From Elusimicrobiota bacterium (GTDB taxonomy: Bacteria > Elusimicrobiota > Elusimicrobia > UBA1565), in contig JACPXC010000007.1 of the NCBI GenBank assembly GCA_016196755.1, positions 186,001 through 250,000 on the forward strand: a stretch of DNA of 64,000 nucleotides, given 5' to 3'. Below, one piece after another: positions 7,216-63,777 of this stretch; positions within the stretch are counted from its first letter, which is position 1; each line of letters starts with the position of its first letter. Position numbers and translations under genes: made by a program. The notes beneath the pieces are model-generated. The model worked only from the letters and a program-made list of their open reading frames with translations, did no database searches and was not told where the DNA came from.

Positions 7216-7229
7216 GCAACGCTCTTGCC
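7216..7229 (-). promoter_or_regulatory. Sigma-54-type -24/-12 element upstream of the FNR-like gene
   Basis: Minus strand GGCAAGAGCGTTGC keeps GG-N10-GC. Predicted +1 would be about 7204, only four bases before the ATG, so the transcript would be nearly leaderless unless the element acts otherwise. Confidence 0.6.
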
Positions 7230-12571: not shown

Positions 12572-15472
12572 TCAGACCTTCTTGTTCCTGACTTTCGTCC
12601 GGTAGTGCACGCCGGGGCCCACGCCCAGCTCGGGCAGGACGCGGAAGGACCGCGCGTCGCCCAGCGCCTCAGCGAGCGGCGCGCCGGCCTCGTTGGCGTC
12701 GCCGAAGACGATCGCCTGCGCCGGACAGCTCTGCGCGCAGGCGGGGCGGACCTGGGAGCCCTTGAGCGCGCGCCCCTCGGACTTGGCCTCCGACGAGGCC
12801 GCGTAGATGCGCTGCACGCAGAACGAGCATTTCTCCATCACTCCGCGCGTGCGCACGGTGACGTCCGGGTTGAGCGCGAGGTTCTGCGTCTGGTCTTGGT
12901 GCGCGTAGTCGAACCAGTTGAAGCGCCGCACCTTGTAGGGACAGTTGTTGGCGCAGTAGCGCGTCCCCACGCAGCGGTTGTAGACCTGCATGTTGAGCCC
13001 TTCGGTCGAGTGGACCGTCGCAAGGACGGGGCAGACCGTCTCGCAGGGGGCGTTGTCGCAGTGCTGGCAGAGCATCGGCTGGAAGGCCGTCTCCACCTCT
13101 CCGGACTCCGACACCTCCTCCCCGGGCGTCCCCGAGTAATAGCGGTCGAGGCGCAGCCACGCCATGTCGCGCCCTTTGCGCACCTCGGCCTTGCCCACCA
13201 CGGGCACGTTGTTCTCGGCCTGGCAGGCGACGACGCAGGCCGAGCAGCCCGTGCACAAGGACAGGTCCACCGACATCGCCCACTTGCGGCCCTTGTACTC
13301 GTGCGCGGGCCACAGGGCCGCGGCCGTCGGTTCGGGCGGATTGCCCGCGCGGGGGTCGCTGAGCAGCTCCTGCAGGGTCGTCTCGCGCAGGTGCTCGCGG
13401 CGCTTCTTGGTCAGCGGGTCGGCCAGGTGGTCGTAAGTCTGCGACTTGGCCAGGAGGCTCATCCCGGGCAGGACCTCCACCGATACCGACCGCAGCCCGA
13501 CGAACGGGTAGAGGTCGGCGCCGCCCCCGGCCTCGCGTTCGATCGGGAGCAGTTTCTCGAGCGGGTAGTTCGCGGCCACCGGCCCGGCCGCGGGACGCCC
13601 GTAGCCCAGCGCGGCAACGACGCTGCCGGGGGCCTGTCCCGGCTGCACGTGCGCGGGGAGCACCGCCGACAGCGCGCCCGCGCGCAGGCGCACCAGGCGT
13701 CCTTCGATGACGCCGAGCCGCGCCGCGTCCTCGGGGGCCAGCGACGCCCAGTTCCCCCAGCAGGCCTTGGTCACGGGGTCGGGGAGCTCCTGCAGCCAGG
13801 GGTTGCCCGCCTGCCGGCCGTCATAGAGCATCGTCGACGCGTAGGGCACAGGCTCGAAGGCCGCGGCCTCGGGCGCCGCCGGCTCGGGGCTCAGACGCGT
13901 CAGCGCGCCGGCGTCGAAGCTCCCCTCGCCGCGTCCCGGCTCGGGCGACGTCACCGCGCCGCGGCGCAGGGCCTCGCTCCAGAAGGCTTCGAAATCCGCG
14001 GCCGCCTTCTGGCGCGCAAAGACCTCCGAGCGCCACAGCGCCCGGACATGGTCGTAGGCCGAGGCGGGACGCCCCGACCAGGCGAGCAAGGTTTCGGCGG
14101 CCGCGCGCGTGTCGTAGAGCGGCGCGACGGCCGGCTGGCGCAGCGAGCGCACGCCCAGGCCCGGCTCGGCGTCGCCCCAGGACTCCAGCGCGTGGTGGTC
14201 GGGCGCCGACCAGTGCGCCAGCGCGGAGGTCTCGTCGGGCAGACCGGAGAGCGTCACCACCAGGCCCGCCTTGCGCGCGGCGGCGCGAAACGCCTCGGCG
14301 TGCGGGTTGTCGTAGGCGGGATTGACACCGTGGACCACCAGGACCGCCACCTCGCCGCGTTCGAGTTCCGACACGAGCCGCGGGAGCGACGCGTCGTCGC
14401 CCTCCGCCTGGAACGACGGACGCGCGAGCTCCAGGGTCGCCCCGTAGGCGGCGAGCATGTGGTTGGTCCAGTTGACGAGGACCTGCACGGCGACGTCGGA
14501 GGACCCGCTGACGACGAGCGCTCGGCCCTTGGCGGCGGCCAAGAGGTCGGCCGCGTCGCGCAGGGCCTTGGCGGCCCGCGGCGGCGCATCGCCGCGCGCC
14601 GCGCGCGGCCCCGTCCAGCCGACCCGGTCCGCCACCAGGCCGGCCAAGAGCGCCGCGGCGCCGCGCTCCTCCGAAGGTTTGAGCGGCACGCGCAAGTCGG
14701 CGTTGGCGCCCGTCAGCGACATCATGGCTTCGAACTGGCCGTGCCAGCTCATCAGGTCCCACTCGTCGGCCGGACGGCGGTTGGCCGCCCAGTCGCGCGT
14801 GAACTCGACCGGCGACACCCAGGAGCCCAGGAAGTCGGCCGCGATGGAGACGATGACGCGGGCCTGCGCGAAGTGATAGCGCGGCAGCGCGCGGCGGCCG
14901 TGGGTCAAGGCGTGGGCTTCGAGGACGGCCGAGCGCGACACCGGGTCGTAGACGACGTGGCGGGCGCCGTGGCGCGCCGTGAAGGCGGCCGCGGCCGCCC
15001 GCTCGGCGGGCCCCGCGGGGGTGCCGGTGAGCAGCCGCACCGCCTTCCCGGAGCGGCCGGCCGCGCGGAGCGCGTCCATCACCGCCGCGTCGAGCTCGCC
15101 CCACGCCGCGGGCGCGTCGCCCTTGCGCGGGCCGCGCAGGCGGCGGGAGTCGTAGAGATCGAGCACCGAGGCCTGGCCGCGCGCGCACAGGCCGCCGCGC
15201 GAGAACGGATGGTCGGGATTGCCCTCGAGCTTGATCGGGCGGCCGTCGCGGACCTTGACGAGCGCGCCGCAGGCCGCCGTGCAGGCGCCGCACGTCGACG
15301 CGTACCAGTCGGCGCGGCCGGGCAGCGACCCCTCGGCGAGCGCCAGAGCGGGCACGACGGCCTCCTTGGGACGCCTCGGCGAACAGCCCGCCGCGGCGAA
15401 CGCCGCGCCCAGGAGCTCGAGGAACTCGCGGCGCTTGATGCCGTCTTCGCGGTCGGTCTGGGCTTCATTCAT
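12572..15472 (-). CDS. actB: Alternative complex III Fe-S subunit ActB
   Basis: 966 residues. The N-terminus combines a Tat motif (KRREFLELLG) with a lipobox-like AAGC. A molybdopterin-oxidoreductase-like domain fills about residues 40-690; in known complex III this domain carries no Mo cofactor. The C-terminal ferredoxin domain has four Cys groups: CTGCSACVVAC, CQHCDNAPCETVC, CVGTRYCANNC and CAQSC. They should hold three 4Fe-4S and one 3Fe-4S cluster by family analogy. The ATG at 15472 lies four bases after actA. The track's 1201-aa frame is an upstream extension over actA. Confidence 0.92.
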   Translation of the reverse strand: MNEAQTDREDGIKRREFLELLGAAFAAAGCSPRRPKEAVVPALALAEGSLPGRADWYASTCGACTAACGALVKVRDGRPIKLEGNPDHPFSRGGLCARGQASVLDLYDSRRLRGPRKGDAPAAWGELDAAVMDALRAAGRSGKAVRLLTGTPAGPAERAAAAAFTARHGARHVVYDPVSRSAVLEAHALTHGRRALPRYHFAQARVIVSIAADFLGSWVSPVEFTRDWAANRRPADEWDLMSWHGQFEAMMSLTGANADLRVPLKPSEERGAAALLAGLVADRVGWTGPRAARGDAPPRAAKALRDAADLLAAAKGRALVVSGSSDVAVQVLVNWTNHMLAAYGATLELARPSFQAEGDDASLPRLVSELERGEVAVLVVHGVNPAYDNPHAEAFRAAARKAGLVVTLSGLPDETSALAHWSAPDHHALESWGDAEPGLGVRSLRQPAVAPLYDTRAAAETLLAWSGRPASAYDHVRALWRSEVFARQKAAADFEAFWSEALRRGAVTSPEPGRGEGSFDAGALTRLSPEPAAPEAAAFEPVPYASTMLYDGRQAGNPWLQELPDPVTKACWGNWASLAPEDAARLGVIEGRLVRLRAGALSAVLPAHVQPGQAPGSVVAALGYGRPAAGPVAANYPLEKLLPIEREAGGGADLYPFVGLRSVSVEVLPGMSLLAKSQTYDHLADPLTKKRREHLRETTLQELLSDPRAGNPPEPTAAALWPAHEYKGRKWAMSVDLSLCTGCSACVVACQAENNVPVVGKAEVRKGRDMAWLRLDRYYSGTPGEEVSESGEVETAFQPMLCQHCDNAPCETVCPVLATVHSTEGLNMQVYNRCVGTRYCANNCPYKVRRFNWFDYAHQDQTQNLALNPDVTVRTRGVMEKCSFCVQRIYAASSEAKSEGRALKGSQVRPACAQSCPAQAIVFGDANEAGAPLAEALGDARSFRVLPELGVGPGVHYRTKVRNKKV

Positions 15473-34735: not shown

Positions 34736-34750
34736 GGCAACGAAGTTGCC
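34736..34750. promoter_or_regulatory. Palindromic sigma-54-type element between rrf2/nos and the permease
   Basis: GGCAACGAAGTTGCC is a perfect inverted repeat (GGCAAC-GAA-GTTGCC) and reads as GG-N10-GC on both strands. It could fire both ways: +1 near 34725 toward the nos operon and near 34761 toward the permease. It could equally be a dimeric operator. Confidence 0.55.
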
Positions 34751-44422: not shown

Positions 44423-44436
44423 GCAACGTTCTTGCC
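44423..44436 (-). promoter_or_regulatory. Sigma-54-type element upstream of tpl
   Basis: Minus strand GGCAAGAACGTTGC. The start codon is only 13 bases beyond, so a conventional +1 would leave a two-base leader. Confidence 0.6.
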
Positions 44437-44439
44437 GGA

Positions 44440-46329
44440 CTACGCGCCGGGGAATGCGGCCGGCTCTTCATCGCGCGCTCCCGTGGGGCTGCCGCTCCCG
44501 CGGCGGTCCTTAAACAGCATGACGGCCGTGCACTGGCCGGCTTGACGGGTCAGCGCGACCCGCGCGAAGCGCCGCTCGAAGACGCCGCGCATGCGGTCAT
44601 TGGAGGCGAGCATCTCGGCCGAGAAGCCTTCGAGCCCCTTTCGCTCGGCGATCCAGGCCAGGTAGTCGACCAGGAAGGAGCCCATTCCCCGGCCTTGGAA
44701 CTCGTCGTGGACGGTGAAGGCGGCCTCGGCCAGCCGGGAGCCGGGGATCGCGAAGTAGCGCGCCACCGCCACCAGCCGCTGGCGCGGGCGTTCCCCGACG
44801 AAGACGCCGACGGCGAAGGAGGTCGTGTTGTCGATCGCCACCAAGGCCTGGAACTCCTTCTCGGAGAGGCGCTTGAGGGGGACCCCGAAGCGCAGCCAGG
44901 TCGTCTCAGGGGACTGCGAGTAGAACAGCTCCTTGAGGCGCCGCTCATCGGTGGGCTTGAGCGGCCGGATAAAGGCCGGCGTCCCGCCGAAGTCCCGGCG
45001 CGTCTCCCACTGCACTTCGTAGCGCTCCCCCGCGGCGAGCACGTGCCCCGCGTCGAGCAAGCCCCAGCGCTTGGCGGCCGCGGCCAGCTCCGCCCGGAAG
45101 CCGGGATGCGCCACCCCGATGAGGGCCAGCGCGCGCTCGCGGATCGTCCGCCCCTTGAGCGCCGCGATGCCGTACTCGGTGACGACGAAGTCGACGTCGG
45201 CGCGCGTCGTGACGACGCCGGTCCCGGGCTCCAGCGCCGCGACGATCCGCGACACGGCGCCGCCCTTGGCGGTGGCCGGCAGGGCGATGATGGCCCGGCC
45301 GCCCTTGGCGCGCGCGGCCCCGCGCATGAAGTCGACCTGCCCGCCCACACCGCTATAGAAGCGATGCCCGAGCGAGTCGGCGGCCACCTGGCCGGTAAGG
45401 TCCACCTGGAGCGCCGAGTTGACGGCCGTCATGCGCTCGTTCTGGGCGATGACGAAGGGGTCGTTGGTGTGGTCGGTCGGGTGGAAGGCGAAGCGCGGGT
45501 CGCGGCCGACGGCCTCGTAGAGCCGCCGCGAGCCCAGGCAGAACGAGGTCACGACCTTGCCCGGGTGCAGGGTCTTGCGGCGGCCGTTCAACACGCCGGC
45601 CTCGAGCAGGGCCAGGACCCCGTCGGAGACCATCTCCGAGTGGATCCCGAGGTCCTTCTTGCCGCCCAGCCGCGCCAGGACGGCATCGGGGATGGCCCCG
45701 ATGCCGAGCTGGAGCGTGGCGCCGTCCTCGATGAGGCTGGCGGCGTAGCGCCCGATCCACAGCGCCGCCGCGGTGGGCGGGGCGGCAGGCAGCTCGCAGA
45801 GCGCCTCCTCCTTCTCGACGAAGGCGTCGAACGCGGACAGCGGCAAAGACGAGTCGCCCCCGGTCCAGGGCATGCGCGAGTTGACCTGGGCGACGACGTA
45901 GGGGGCCGTCTCCGCCGCCGCCTTGACGACGTCGACGGCCACCCCCAGGGAGACCCTCCCCCGGCGCGGCGGCGAGGTCATGACCAGCGCCGCGTCCAGA
46001 GGCATGCGCCCGGAGCGGAACATCCCCGGCACCTCCGAGAGGAAGCAGGGGGTATAGTCCGCCAGCCCCGCCCCCACCGCCTGGCGCACGTTGGCGCCGA
46101 TAAACAACGCGTTGTGGCGCAACCCGCCCTGGCGGCCCGCCTCCGCGTAGGGTGCCGCGCCGAGGGTCATGAGGTGCACGACCTCGGTATCGGAGAGCCC
46201 CGCGGCCCGCTCCGCCAGCGCCGACACGAGGTGCTGGGGCTCCCCCGCCCCCGAGCCGACGAACACCCGCTGGCCGGAGCCGACGGGCGCCAGCGCGACT
46301 CCTGCCGCTACGCCGCGCAAAGGCGCCAC
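44440..46329 (-). CDS. Acetyl-CoA hydrolase/CoA-transferase family protein fused to a GNAT domain
   Basis: 629 residues. Residues 1-~440 are a class I CoA-transferase of the acetate/4-hydroxybutyrate type, with LQLGIGAIPDAVLARL, HSEMVSDGV, YSGVGGQVDFMRGA and the catalytic Glu in VVTEYGIAALKG. About 455-610 form an acetyltransferase fold with the acetyl-CoA loop EFQGRGMGSFLVDYL. Such fusions suggest acetylation-linked control or a second acyl transfer. Would exchange CoA between acyl groups in fermentation. GTG start with GAGG nearby; four bases after the CBS gene. Confidence 0.85.
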   Translation of the reverse strand: MAPLRGVAAGVALAPVGSGQRVFVGSGAGEPQHLVSALAERAAGLSDTEVVHLMTLGAAPYAEAGRQGGLRHNALFIGANVRQAVGAGLADYTPCFLSEVPGMFRSGRMPLDAALVMTSPPRRGRVSLGVAVDVVKAAAETAPYVVAQVNSRMPWTGGDSSLPLSAFDAFVEKEEALCELPAAPPTAAALWIGRYAASLIEDGATLQLGIGAIPDAVLARLGGKKDLGIHSEMVSDGVLALLEAGVLNGRRKTLHPGKVVTSFCLGSRRLYEAVGRDPRFAFHPTDHTNDPFVIAQNERMTAVNSALQVDLTGQVAADSLGHRFYSGVGGQVDFMRGAARAKGGRAIIALPATAKGGAVSRIVAALEPGTGVVTTRADVDFVVTEYGIAALKGRTIRERALALIGVAHPGFRAELAAAAKRWGLLDAGHVLAAGERYEVQWETRRDFGGTPAFIRPLKPTDERRLKELFYSQSPETTWLRFGVPLKRLSEKEFQALVAIDNTTSFAVGVFVGERPRQRLVAVARYFAIPGSRLAEAAFTVHDEFQGRGMGSFLVDYLAWIAERKGLEGFSAEMLASNDRMRGVFERRFARVALTRQAGQCTAVMLFKDRRGSGSPTGARDEEPAAFPGA

Positions 46330-46333
46330 GGCC

Positions 46334-46774
46334 TCAGCTCCCGGTCTCGAGGACCTTGAGGAGGTCGAGGGTCGTCACGATGCCCAGGAGCTTGCGGCCC
46401 TTGGTGATGAAGACGCGGTGGATGCGCCGGCGGCGCATGAGCCGGGCGAGCTCGGGCACCGGCGCGTCGGCGGAGGCCTCGATCGCCCCCGGCGTCATGA
46501 TGTCGGAGACCGTGGTGCGGTCGGGAGACTCCACATGGAAGCCCTCGGGCAGGCGCGCGACCGGCGCGATGAAGGACTCGCCGCCCTCCAGCTCATGGTG
46601 CACGAGGTCGCTCTTGGAGACCACGCCGACCAAGGCGCCCCCGCCGTCGACGACGGCCGCCCCGGAGATGCGCTTCTCGTCGAGCAGTCTTGCCAGCTCG
46701 CGCACCAGCATGTTGGGCCGTACCGTCACCACCTTCTTCTGCATGACGTCTCGCGCCGTCGCCGTCGTCTTCAT
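46334..46774 (-). CDS. Tandem CBS-domain protein
   Basis: 146 residues: two CBS motifs (ARDVMQKKVVTVRPN...AVVDGGGALVGVVSKSDL; VSDIMTPGAIEASADAP...VFITKGRKLLGIVTTLDLL) and nothing else. Binds adenine nucleotides by family and may sense energy state for the adjacent CoA-transferase. AGGGAGG precedes the ATG. Confidence 0.92.
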   Translation of the reverse strand: MKTTATARDVMQKKVVTVRPNMLVRELARLLDEKRISGAAVVDGGGALVGVVSKSDLVHHELEGGESFIAPVARLPEGFHVESPDRTTVSDIMTPGAIEASADAPVPELARLMRRRRIHRVFITKGRKLLGIVTTLDLLKVLETGS

Positions 46775-46837: not shown

Positions 46838-47620
46838 CTACCTTGAGAAATGCAACATGACCGCCAAAAAGAGGGCGGTCCAGCCCACCTCCTGCCAGCC
46901 GACCTTCTTGAGCTCGAGACCGGGACCCTGGCGGGCCGCCCACCACGCCGACTTCGCGGCCGAGGCGCCGAAGGGGAGCAGGGCGCCCGCCGGCACGGCG
47001 CCGCCGGCGGCGGCGGCGGCGACCGCGGCGGCCGCGGCCCCGTGGTAGGCGAGGCTCAGGCGGCGGGCGCCGTCGGCGCGCCGGGCGGCCTCGACGGGGG
47101 CGCCGCGGGCCGAGGCCGCGCGCCGGCTCACGAGCATCTTCACGTGGAAGACCGGGCCCGAGAAGAACAGCGCGCAGAGCGCCCACAGCCAGGCCGCGCC
47201 GGGCTCCCAGGCGCCCGAGGCCGCGTACCAGGCGGCCGGCGCTCCCAGCGAGAGGCCGGCGATGCCAACCAGTTCGTTGGCCTCGGACATCGCCCGGCGC
47301 CGACGCTGGTTCCGGAGCGCGACGGCGAGTGCGCCGCCGTCCGGCGGGACCATGAGGAGCAGGCCCCAGCGTCCGTAGAGCGCGGCCAGCCCGCCGAAGC
47401 CCGCGGCGGCCGCGGCGGCGCAGCTCAGCACCCACCGCCGCGCCGCGGGATGGCCCGGCGACTCGAGCAGGACGCCGAGCGGCGTGCGCAAGAGGAACGC
47501 CCCCGCCGTCCCGAGGGCGAAGAGCGCGGCGGCGCCGGCCGGGCCGCCGCCCGCCGCGGCCCAGCCCAAGACGGGCGGGACGAGCAGCATCACCCAACTG
47601 CCGTGTTCACGCGGCAGCAT
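46838..47620 (-). CDS. YwiC-like membrane protein
   Basis: 260 residues with about seven hydrophobic helices. The N-terminus LPREHGSWVMLLVPPVLG is the hallmark of the YwiC-like family. In Bacillus ywiC sits with anaerobic respiration genes; its role is unknown. Overlaps the sigma-54 gene by 14 bases. Confidence 0.82.
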   Translation of the reverse strand: MLPREHGSWVMLLVPPVLGWAAAGGGPAGAAALFALGTAGAFLLRTPLGVLLESPGHPAARRWVLSCAAAAAAGFGGLAALYGRWGLLLMVPPDGGALAVALRNQRRRRAMSEANELVGIAGLSLGAPAAWYAASGAWEPGAAWLWALCALFFSGPVFHVKMLVSRRAASARGAPVEAARRADGARRLSLAYHGAAAAAVAAAAAGGAVPAGALLPFGASAAKSAWWAARQGPGLELKKVGWQEVGWTALFLAVMLHFSR

Positions 47621-48710
47621 GGACCGCCGTCAGCTTGCGGCGCACCTCGTTGACGGTGCGCCGCGACACGTTGATGCCGGCCTCGTCGGCCAGCCGCCGC
47701 ATGAGCGTCTCATCGGTGATGCCGCCGCCGACCGCGCCCTTCTCCATCCAGTCCGCGAGGATCGACATCAGCACGAAGCGCTGTCCGGTCAAGAGACTCT
47801 TGAGCGGGACCTCCTTGCCCCAGGGCAGCGCCACCGAGCGGTTGGAGACCGCGCGGCTGACCGTGCTGGGGGCCACGCCGATGCGCCGGGCCAGCTCGCG
47901 CAGGGAGAGCGGCCTCAGGCGCGTGCCGTCGCGGCTGCTGAGGTAGGAGGTCTGCTCGGTGGTGACCCGGGCGAGGATCTGGAAGAGGGTGTCCTGGCGC
48001 ATGTTGAGCAGCTCGACGCGCTTGAGCACCTCGCGCAGGCGGCGCTTCTCCTCGCCGCTCATGCCCCGGCGGCGCTTCCAGTCCTCGAGCTTGTCGTAGA
48101 GGACGACGTAGCGGCCGCGGGCCCATTGCGGCGACATGAAGCGGAAGCTCAGCTGGCCCGGGTCGCGGCGGTCCTGGTCTATGGCGGCGATGCAGTGGAA
48201 GCGCGTCCCGGCCGAGGCCGGCTCGACGGCCGGTCGGAAGAACTCCGAGCGCGTTCCCACCTCGATGACGAGCTCCAGGATGCGGCGCCCCTCGGCCTCG
48301 GTGAGGCCCAGCTCGAGGCAGGCCTGGGGCAGGGGCTTGGCGTCGTCGCCGTAGAGGAAGTAGCGCTCGAAGGCCGACACCCCGATGCGGCGGATGAGAT
48401 GGAGCATGTCGGCGCGCTTCTCGAGGATGTCGCTGACGTCGCCGCTGGAGGCGCCCGCCGCGGCGGCCTCGTTGAACTCGTAGAAGCCGCCGTGCAGGCT
48501 CGATGCCGGCCAGCGCTTGCGGCGCATGAGCGGCGAGGCGTGGCTCGACCCGTACATGAGCTCGTGGAAGATCGGCTCGGACTCCAGGGAGCGGATCTCC
48601 CGGGCTACCTCGGGCTCGCTGAGCGCCAGCCATTTCGCGGCGGCCAAGCGGCCCTGCAGGAGCTGTCGGTTCTGGAGCTTCTGCTCGACGCGCATCTCGG
48701 GTTTGGACAT
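47607..48710 (-). CDS. rpoN: Divergent, short RNA polymerase sigma-54 factor
   Basis: 367 residues, against the usual ~450-500. Residues 8-45 (QKLQNRQLLQGRLAAAKWLALSE) have the layout of region I, which meets the activator. The core-binding part holds GYxEF-like helices. About 265-300 (LSLRELARRIGVAPSTVSRAVSNR) is the HTH. SRRTVNEVRRKL near residue 350 is a changed form of the RpoN box (ARRTVxKYRE). It recognises -24/-12 promoters, and one stands 24 bases before its own ATG, which has GAGG in a 13-base leader, so it looks autoregulated. Divergent from an NtrB/NtrC-type pair. Confidence 0.82.
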   Translation of the reverse strand: MSKPEMRVEQKLQNRQLLQGRLAAAKWLALSEPEVAREIRSLESEPIFHELMYGSSHASPLMRRKRWPASSLHGGFYEFNEAAAAGASSGDVSDILEKRADMLHLIRRIGVSAFERYFLYGDDAKPLPQACLELGLTEAEGRRILELVIEVGTRSEFFRPAVEPASAGTRFHCIAAIDQDRRDPGQLSFRFMSPQWARGRYVVLYDKLEDWKRRRGMSGEEKRRLREVLKRVELLNMRQDTLFQILARVTTEQTSYLSSRDGTRLRPLSLRELARRIGVAPSTVSRAVSNRSVALPWGKEVPLKSLLTGQRFVLMSILADWMEKGAVGGGITDETLMRRLADEAGINVSRRTVNEVRRKLTAVHAAA

Positions 48711-48734
48711 TGGGGGGCCTCAGACGATTATTAT

Positions 48735-48748
48735 GCAACAGGATTGCC
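48735..48748 (-). promoter_or_regulatory. Sigma-54-type promoter of the sigma-54 operon
   Basis: Minus strand GGCAATCCTGTTGC preceded by T. Predicted +1 at about 48723 leaves a 13-base leader carrying TGAGG before the ATG at 48710, a fully orthodox layout. Confidence 0.7.
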
Positions 48749-48767
48749 AAAACGTCAAAGCACCGCG

Positions 48768-48795
48768 TTCCCAAGTGGGACAGGCTTTGTATGAT
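48768..48795 (+). promoter_or_regulatory. Sigma-70-type promoter of the two-component pair
   Basis: TTCCCA, 16 bases, TATGAT. +1 would fall about two bases before the kinase ATG at 48804. The -10 is good, the -35 poor. It suggests that the activator pair is made independently of sigma-54. Confidence 0.45.
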
Positions 48796-48803
48796 ATTGG
48801 AAC

Positions 48804-50257
48804 ATGGCTGCTGTCCCCCACAAGGCTGGCTCGAGCGAGGTCGAGGAGAAGTACCGCCAGCTCTTCGACTCCGCCACCGACATGATCTTCCTGCGCGACC
48901 CCGAGTCGGGCAAGCTCATGGACGTCAACCGAGCCGCCTGCGGCAACCTCGGCTACTCCCGCGACGAGCTCTTGTGGACCGATTACTTCGCGCTGATCCC
49001 GGCCGGGGCCGAGCGCGACGGCGCGCGGCGGAACTTCGAGGAGGCGCTGAGTGCGGGCAGCTCCACCAGGGTGGTGGTGTTCAAGCGCAAGGACGGGTCG
49101 TCCTTGGAGGCCGAGATCCGCAACACCCCGACGACCATCGCCGGCAAGGTCTGGATGCTCGGGATCGCGCGCGACCTCACCGCCCAGCGCCAGCTCGAGC
49201 GCCGGGCCCTGGCTTTCTATCAGGCGTTCCGCAACTCCAACGACTCGATGTTCTACACCGACCACAACGGGATCATCCAGGACGTCAACGACGCCTTCGT
49301 GCGCCGCTTCGGCTTCGCGCGCGAGGAGGCCGTGGGCCGGAGCCCGCGCATCGTGCGCTCCCGCCACACCTCCGACGAGCTCTACAAGCGGCTATGGACC
49401 GAGATCCTCGACCCCTCCAAGGGCTACTGGCGCGGCCGCGTCATCAACCGGACCAAGGCCGGCGAGGAGATCCCGGTCCTGCTCGCGATCACCTCGGTCC
49501 GCGACGGCCTCGACGGCATCGTCGGCTTCGTCTCGAGCGCGTTCGACCTCTCCGAGATCGAGACCCTGCACCGCCGCCTGGCCAAGAGCGAGTCGCTGGC
49601 GGCGGTGGGCACGATGGCGGCCGTGCTGGCCCACGAGATCCGCAACCCGCTGGGCTCGATCGTCACCGCCGCCGCCAGCATCGCGCGGGGCGAGCTTTCC
49701 GCCGAGGACAAGACGACTTTGTCCTCGGTCGTGCGCCAGGAGAGCCGGCGCCTCTCGGACACCCTGACGCAGTTTCTGCAGTACGCGCGGCCGCGCGACC
49801 CCGTCCTCGCGACGGCAGACCTCAACGCCCTGGTTACCGAGCTGGCCGCCCTGCTGCGCTCCGACGCCGCTACGCTGGGCAAGGTCAAGCTCACGGTCCA
49901 CGCCGCCAAGGAGCTCCCGCGCTTTCCCTTCGACGCGGGCCAGGTGCGCCAGGCCCTGCTCAACCTTGCCCTCAACTCCCTGCAGGCCCTCGAGGGCAAG
50001 GGGCGCCTGAGCTTGACGGTCGAACGCCGCGACCCGCACGCCGTCGTCATCGTCTCCGACGACGGCCCCGGGATCCCGGCCGCGACCCAGAAGCGCCTCT
50101 TCGAGCCGTTCCACACCACCAAGGAGAAGGGCACCGGCCTCGGGCTGGCGGTGGCCGACCGCATCGCGGCGGCCCACGGCGGCGCCATCCTAGTCGAGAG
50201 CGACGTGGGCCAGGGCGCCTCCTTCACGTTCCTGCTGCCGCTGCGCAAGGAGACGAC

Positions 50258-50261
<4 letters not shown>
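48804..50261 (+). CDS. NtrB-type PAS-PAS sensor histidine kinase
   Basis: 485 residues, no membrane helices. PAS 1 about 17-125 (YRQLFDSATDMIFLRDPESGKL), PAS 2 about 135-250 (YQAFRNSNDSMFYTDHNGIIQ). Phospho-acceptor His in VLAHEIRNPLGSI near residue 277; ATPase boxes LLNLALNSLQALEG, DDGPGIP and GTGLGLAVADRI. Cytosolic signal sensing through PAS, perhaps redox or a metabolite. ATGA overlap with the response regulator, which it should phosphorylate. Confidence 0.92.
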
Positions 50262-51607
<1,346 letters not shown>

Positions 51608-51608
51608 C

Positions 51609-51622
51609 GGCAGAAGCGTTGC
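51609..51622 (+). promoter_or_regulatory. Sigma-54-type element after the NtrC-like gene
   Basis: GGCAGAAGCGTTGC begins two bases past the regulator stop. The nearest ATG (51635) is 12 bases downstream. Confidence 0.5.
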
Positions 51623-51910: not shown

Positions 51911-51924
51911 GGCAAGAGCGTTGC
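51911..51924 (+). promoter_or_regulatory. Sigma-54-type promoter of the small beta protein
   Basis: GGCAAGAGCGTTGC, identical to the element before the FNR-like gene. +1 near 51936; the ATG at 51982 then has a 46-base leader containing GAGG. Confidence 0.65.
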
Positions 51925-52293: not shown

Positions 52294-52307
52294 GGCAACA
52301 GCGTTGC
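52294..52307 (+). promoter_or_regulatory. Sigma-54-type element, first of a tandem pair
   Basis: GGCAACAGCGTTGC. +1 would be near 52319, within the second, degenerate copy 10 bases further on. Confidence 0.55.
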
Positions 52308-52317
52308 TCTACACATA

Positions 52318-52331
52318 GGCAAGAGCGTTTC
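52318..52331 (+). promoter_or_regulatory. Degenerate sigma-54-type element, second of the pair
   Basis: GGCAAGAGCGTTTC differs from the common form only in the -12 box (TTTC for TTGC), which would remove the critical G. It may be a decayed promoter or a competing binding site. Confidence 0.4.
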
Positions 52332-52550: not shown

Positions 52551-52564
52551 GGCAGGACCGTTGC
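52551..52564 (+). promoter_or_regulatory. Sigma-54-type element upstream of the pyruvate oxidoreductase operon
   Basis: GGCAGGACCGTTGC; the ATG of the first gene is 16 bases further, leaving a predicted leader of about five bases. Confidence 0.6.
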
Positions 52565-57571: not shown

Positions 57572-57585
57572 GGCAGGAACGTTGC
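57572..57585 (+). promoter_or_regulatory. Sigma-54-type promoter of the malic enzyme gene
   Basis: GGCAGGAACGTTGC just past the SemiSWEET stop. +1 near 57597 gives a 15-base leader with TAGGAGG before the ATG at 57612, the clearest functional layout of the set. Confidence 0.75.
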
Positions 57586-63763: not shown

Positions 63764-63777
63764 GCAACGTTATTGCC
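63764..63777 (-). promoter_or_regulatory. Sigma-54-type promoter of the Rieske/cytochrome b operon
   Basis: Minus strand GGCAATAACGTTGC overlaps the stop of the preceding gene. +1 near 63752, giving a ~33-base leader with AAGGTGA. Confidence 0.7.

What the first reader, a model, noticed from the sequence alone, without database searches (positions are those of the whole stretch)
47607..48748. Short divergent sigma-54 that appears to drive its own operon
At 367 residues, with RpoN box SRRTVNEVRRKL in place of ARRTVxKYRE, it may read a modified -24 box, fitting the GGCA(A/G) preference of the local sites over the usual GGCAC. Its own -24/-12 site and leader are orthodox, so feedback is likely.
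Basis: partly seen in the sequence, partly recalled or inferred. Interest (0 to 1): 0.68.

Follow-up and report, generated by a model that had tools for sequence, protein, structure and literature searches.

The report
Shortened sigma-54 with clustered private promoters
Bacteria of the phylum Elusimicrobiota appear to have replaced the usual sigma-54 transcription factor with short, strongly altered versions; the one in this window seems to switch on its own operon and about twenty energy-metabolism operons, most of them packed around its own gene, through a slightly altered promoter sequence.

Summary
ORF 47607-48710(-), 367 aa, is a real, divergent sigma-54: its DNA-binding half, -12 helix-turn-helix and RpoN box are recognisable, but Pfam finds no core-binding or activator-interacting domain; the best PDB matches of its structure model are all sigma-54. 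A second short paralogue (family B) lies elsewhere in the genome, and no canonical rpoN was found (1 of 295 phylum genomes has one). Family A, ours, sits head-to-head with its own PAS kinase and NtrC-type activator; this trio is conserved in the family. Its promoter TTGGCAATCCTGTTGCA (48734-48750) is one of 22 GGCAR-N3-YGTTGC sites in 4.59 Mb, 17 of them within 95 kb around the gene (0.18 expected in 98 kb). Sites recur ahead of orthologous genes in sister species (ResB, PFOR, malic enzyme, cytochrome c, sigma itself). Position -21 is almost never C. In two more distant genomes, A-linked sites are TGGCAA and other intergenic sites TGGCAY. A modified -24 preference and self-feedback are well supported in this genus. 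Blaming RpoN-box residues is not: a box close to a family A box goes with the other base, and feedback is absent in many relatives. Predictions only; no experiment.

The parts
47607..48710 (-). Divergent 367-aa sigma-54 (family A)
   Evidence: Pfam Sigma54_DBD 60.4 bits, no CBD/AID; best PDB profile hits and Foldseek top rows are sigma-54
47631..47666 (-). RpoN box SRRTVNEVRRKL (residues 349-360)
   Evidence: alignment with canonical sigma-54: R455, R456, R462 kept; A459->N, K460->E, Y461->V
47826..47915 (-). -12 helix-turn-helix; canonical Glu378 position is Pro (P281), Arg383 kept (R286)
48734..48749 (-). -24/-12 promoter TGGCAATCCTGTTGCA of the sigma gene
   Evidence: site also ahead of orthologues in G224, G273, G089, L068
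48766..48782 (.). Inverted repeat CGTTCCCAAGTGGGACA, candidate operator between sigma and kinase genes
   Evidence: TGTYC-N7-GRACA best site 30-34 nt upstream of -24 in G000, G224, L065; weaker in G089; not at the other promoters
48804..50261 (+). PAS-PAS histidine kinase, divergent from sigma
   Evidence: Pfam; synteny
50258..51607 (+). NtrC-type response regulator / sigma-54 activator, L1 loop GSFTGA
   Evidence: Pfam Sigma54_activat 240 bits, Response_reg, HTH_8; loop; synteny
46838..47620 (-). YwiC-like protein, overlaps the sigma stop by 14 nt (likely same operon)
46334..46774 (-). CBS-domain protein, likely same operon
   Evidence: kept next to sigma in several relatives
44440..46329 (-). 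CoA-transferase/hydrolase fused to GNAT acetyltransferase, likely same operon
   Evidence: kept near sigma in several relatives
44423..44436 (-). GGCAAGAACGTTGC site 27 nt before tyrosine phenol-lyase-like gene (then FeoB-like)
52551..52564 (+). GGCAGGACCGTTGC site 30 nt before 2-oxoacid:ferredoxin oxidoreductase gamma-like gene
51911..51924 (+). GGCAAGAGCGTTGC site before a 110-aa ORF
57572..57585 (+). GGCAGGAACGTTGC site 40 nt before malic enzyme; a site also precedes it in G224 and G273
63764..63777 (-). GGCAATAACGTTGC site before Rieske protein
34737..34750 (-). GGCAACTTCGTTGC site before Rrf2-family regulator
7216..7229 (-). GGCAAGAGCGTTGC site 29 nt before Crp/Fnr-family regulator

Best explanation
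The gene encodes a lineage-specific, reduced sigma-54. It directs RNA polymerase to -24/-12 promoters of the form YGGCAR-N3-YG-TTGC, where -21 is a purine and not the canonical C. It is probably activated by the NtrC-type regulator encoded head-to-head with it, under control of the adjacent PAS kinase. In this genus its regulon is about 20 operons, many of energy metabolism (cytochrome c biogenesis, PFOR and a related oxidoreductase, malic enzyme, multihaem cytochrome, Crp/Fnr and Rrf2 regulators), mostly within 95 kb around the gene, and it includes the sigma operon itself, giving positive feedback. Shown by sequence: sigma-54 homology, promoter-like sites, their clustering and cross-species recurrence, gene order. 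Inferred: that this sigma and not its paralogue reads the sites, that the neighbouring activator is the cognate one, and the sign of the feedback.
For: Homology and structure. Site clustering: 17 of 22 genome sites in 95 kb, binomial P 6e-25; 17 against 0.175 expected. Spacing: GGCA-N6-TTGC 21 hits against 7 or fewer at every other spacing, and GGCA-N5-GTTGC 18 against at most 2. Direction: most sites point at a plausible start codon 18-60 nt downstream. Recurrence: sites ahead of orthologous ResB, PFOR, malic enzyme and sigma in three species, of cytochrome c and ferredoxin reductase in two, and of the 161675 gene in two. The relative G283, in which no family A gene was found, shows no enrichment, 6 against 5 reversed control. 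Linked trio. Two site classes in G053/G103: nine A-linked intergenic sites TGGCAA, nine others TGGCAY.
Against: No upstream activator motif shared by the promoters was found. G262 and G228 carry family A but show little or no site enrichment, so the regulon sites are not clear beyond the genus and G089. No site was seen at the Rieske and Rrf2 homologues of G224 in the stretches read. The -21 letter is T at the two G089 sites near its sigma gene. The 18 G053/G103 sites come from two sister genomes and are not independent, and their intergenic status was judged by ORF inspection. Family B could in principle read the same sites.
Confidence: 0.75

Rival explanations
1. The repeated GGCAR-N3-YGTTGC motif is an operator for a dimeric regulator (Crp/Fnr or Rrf2, both encoded in the region), not a sigma-54 promoter; its likeness to -24/-12 reflects the partial dyad GGCAA-N5-TTGCC.
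For: Several sites are near-perfect inverted repeats (34737-34750; 7216-7229); both regulators lie in the region behind such sites.
Against: The site is directional: with the flanking letters left free, G precedes in 17 of 18 but the dyad partner C follows in only 6 of 18. Sites mostly lie 18-60 nt ahead of start codons in one orientation. Spacing matches sigma-54 exactly, and a site lies ahead of the sigma gene itself in five genomes.
Confidence: 0.12
2. An ordinary sigma-54: the phylum's normal single RpoN reading standard TGGCAC promoters.
For: Core RpoN-box arginines, -12 HTH arginine and GG/GC spacing are canonical.
Against: No canonical rpoN found in the genome; a second short paralogue; CBD above the Pfam cut-off in only 1 of 295 phylum genomes; score 71 bits against a 277-bit NCBIfam cut-off; C almost absent at -21.
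Confidence: 0.05
3. Both paralogues read the same promoters, and the R/Y split at -21 reflects activator or base-composition differences, not sigma specificity.
For: RpoN-box residues do not sort with the -21 base (SRRTVNLYR with A, SRRTINQYR with Y in G103). Few family B sites are known. In the AT-rich G053/G103 an A is fairly likely by composition.
Against: In the GC-rich genus a C at -21 would be common by composition, yet it appears in 2 of 56 sites; nine against nine complete split in G053/G103.
Confidence: 0.2

Closest known systems
Canonical sigma-54 (RpoN), e.g. Klebsiella pneumoniae
   Same: DNA-binding domain, -12 HTH arginine, RpoN-box RRT..R, GG-N10-GC promoters, NtrC-type activator
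   Different: 367 aa; no Pfam-detectable AID or CBD; Glu378 position is Pro; box A459N, K460E, Y461V; purine at -21
Cereibacter sphaeroides RpoN1-RpoN4 (PMC11999139)
   Same: Several sigma-54 paralogues with private activators and separate promoter sets
   Different: There the -11 position is reported as relevant for discriminating RpoN1 from RpoN2 promoters; here the candidate is -21 and the proteins are reduced
Short sigma-54 family B of the same phylum (own copy at C59:26036-26410)
   Same: Same reduced architecture, PF04552 only
   Different: Separate clade with SRRSxxQYR box; two family B genes with a clear upstream site (L037, L039) have T and C at -21

Membership tests
Sigma-54 (RpoN) | Sigma54_DBD (PF04552) | tested here: met
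   60.4 bits, cut-off 22.8
Sigma-54 (RpoN) | Core-binding domain (PF04963) | tested here: not met
   no match in the protein or genome; Foldseek still aligns the model to sigma-54 over up to about 440 columns at low TM, so a reduced CBD is possible
Sigma-54 (RpoN) | Activator-interacting region I (PF00309) | tested here: not met
   no Pfam match; global profile alignment places the N-terminus on region I but with weak support
Sigma-54 (RpoN) | RpoN box ARRTVxKYRE | tested here: not met
   SRRTVNEVRR; invariant arginines kept, K460 and Y461 changed
Sigma-54 (RpoN) | -12 HTH residues Glu378 and Arg383 | tested here: not met
   Arg kept, Glu is Pro in family A and many of the phylum's copies
Sigma-54 (RpoN) | -24/-12 promoters with GG-N10-GC | tested here: met
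   (sequence evidence only)
Sigma-54 (RpoN) | Cognate AAA+ activator with GAFTGA loop | tested here: met
   adjacent activator with the variant GSFTGA; cognate status inferred
Sigma-54 (RpoN) | Binds core RNA polymerase; transcription dependent on activator and ATP | not testable with these tools
   needs biochemistry
NCBIfam rpoN_sigma (TIGR02395) | Equivalog score of 277 bits | tested here: not met
   71.4 bits

The most novel reading that the evidence does not exclude
Elusimicrobiota replaced canonical sigma-54 with a family of mini sigma-54 paralogues, each with its own kinase/activator pair and its own -21 letter in the -24 box, giving insulated regulons; the activator L1 loop drifts (GSFTGA, GSYTGA, GAFTDA) alongside the altered region I. 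In this genus the A paralogue acts as a regional sigma factor for a 95-kb energy-metabolism cluster.
Probability: 0.4. Interest if true: 0.78.

Novelty: new variant of a known kind. Interest (0 to 1): 0.62.

Why it matters
A 2011 survey listed Elusimicrobium minutum among species lacking sigma-54 (PMC3162934), and no paper found in the library searched describes these short forms in the phylum. They suggest how much of sigma-54 may be dispensable and offer a natural test of how paralogous sigma-54s avoid cross-talk at the -24 box. They also give a promoter motif and candidate regulon for a poorly cultured phylum.

Tried and rejected
A first whole-collection scan with the single protein found nothing, and the broad alignment had no usable pattern; the family A alignment worked. 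A search for a shared upstream activator motif gave nothing general. A rule linking one RpoN-box residue to the -21 base failed. An asymmetry test on pattern-selected sites was biased by the pattern and replaced. A first scan of upstream regions of the more distant loci used an uncertain start estimate and was replaced by a whole-locus scan. The 13614-13627, 51609-51622 and 52294-52307 matches have no convincing gene start and are not counted as promoters with confidence.

Full report
Observation. The ORF at 47607-48710(-) encodes 367 aa. The only sigma-54 domain Pfam finds is Sigma54_DBD (residues 227-361, 60.4 bits). A profile of 30 relatives retrieves sigma-54 chains as the best PDB sequences (5ui5, E 2e-32), and the AlphaFold model (mean pLDDT 83) returns sigma-54 in all 26 best Foldseek rows, at low TM-scores. 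The low TM is probably a matter of domain arrangement (inference). The N-terminal half is strongly diverged: no CBD or AID by Pfam, and only a weak global alignment to canonical region I and CBD. The -12 HTH carries Pro where canonical sigma-54 has the invariant Glu378, and the RpoN box reads SRRTVNEVRRKL.

Copies. The window's genome (4.59 Mb) holds two such genes, ours and C59:26036-26410, and no CBD match. In 295 genomes of the phylum 115 have the DBD and one has a canonical CBD above cut-off. Named relatives are nearly all titled Elusimicrobia MAGs. A tree separates family A (20 rows, support 96/95) from family B. The other genomes of the same family carry both, except G283, where only B-like scores were found.

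Neighbourhood. A PAS kinase and an NtrC-type activator (loop GSFTGA) are divergently encoded next to the sigma gene, and this order is kept in G224, G089, G262, G228 and L065; more distant relatives often keep a kinase or activator nearby. Downstream genes in the apparent operon are YwiC-like, CBS and CoA-transferase/GNAT.

Promoters. The sigma gene has TTGGCAATCCTGTTGCA at 48734-48750. The pattern GGCARNNNYGTTGC has 22 matches in the genome against 2 for the reversed control, 17 of them in C37:161.7-256.7 kb (binomial P 6e-25). In 98 kb, 17 are seen against 0.175 expected, and the spacing is strict. Downstream genes include ResB (recognised by sequence, not run through Pfam), PFOR, radical SAM, Crp/Fnr, Rrf2, tyrosine phenol-lyase-like, POR gamma, malic enzyme, Rieske and multihaem cytochrome c. 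In G224 and G273 sites stand ahead of the orthologues of ResB, PFOR, malic enzyme and sigma, and in one of the two ahead of cytochrome c, ferredoxin reductase or the 161675 gene. This is the strongest evidence that the sites are functional. Enrichment over the reversed control is clear in the genus (24 vs 3, 20 vs 5, 12 vs 3), moderate in G089 (20 vs 11), and weak or absent in G262, G228 and in G283, where no family A gene was found.

Specificity. At -21 the region has A15 G5 T1 C0 with the letter left free; in the genus 2 of 56 are C. In G053 and G103, the intergenic TGGCAR sites lie near the family A gene and the intergenic TGGCAY sites lie elsewhere (9 against 9, Fisher 4e-5, but two sister genomes, so not independent). 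RpoN-box residues do not explain this: G103's A copy is SRRTVNLYR and its paralogue SRRTINQYR. That C is the consensus letter at -21 of canonical promoters is from general knowledge of sigma-54, not tested here.

Feedback. The sigma promoter is present in G000, G224, G273, G089 and L068, but no exact GGCA-N6-TTGC precedes the gene in 22 further family A-like loci. Feedback is therefore a feature of this lineage, and its positive sign is inferred.

Rivals. A dimeric-regulator operator is less likely because the motif is directional, and spaced and placed like a promoter. Literature: in C. sphaeroides the -11 position and private activators separate RpoN paralogues (PMC11999139); the 2011 survey lists E. 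minutum as lacking sigma-54 (PMC3162934); crosslinkable substitutions at Glu378 and Arg383 crosslink to promoter DNA (PMC5505868). Nothing on sigma-54 in Elusimicrobiota beyond that survey was recognised among the hits; the library lacks most subscription papers.

Noticed in passing
44409, 52581 and L046:10620, L260:3951, L272:6317: Start codons of phenol-lyase, POR gamma, PFOR and ResB lie 24-31 nt after the first G of the -24 box, implying leaders of about 0-6 nt if transcription starts are canonical.
   Followed up: partly
48766-48782: Inverted repeat CGTTCCCAAGTGGGACA between the sigma and kinase genes, with a matching TGTYC-N7-GRACA in G224 and L065.
   Followed up: partly
L073, L081, L107, L135: Activators in relatives with loop GAFTDA instead of GAFTGA.
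   Followed up: no
52294-52331: Two site-like sequences 24 bp apart in tandem ahead of the POR gamma gene, one with a mismatch.
   Followed up: no
L152, L154, L149, L151: In G053/G103 the A-type sites precede MoaA-like, AmtB-like and two Rrf2-like genes (names by sequence look only).
   Followed up: no
L119 9451-12704: The second sigma-54 of G103 also has an activator and kinase beside it, and a tRNA-Leu-like sequence precedes it (tRNA by eye only).
   Followed up: no
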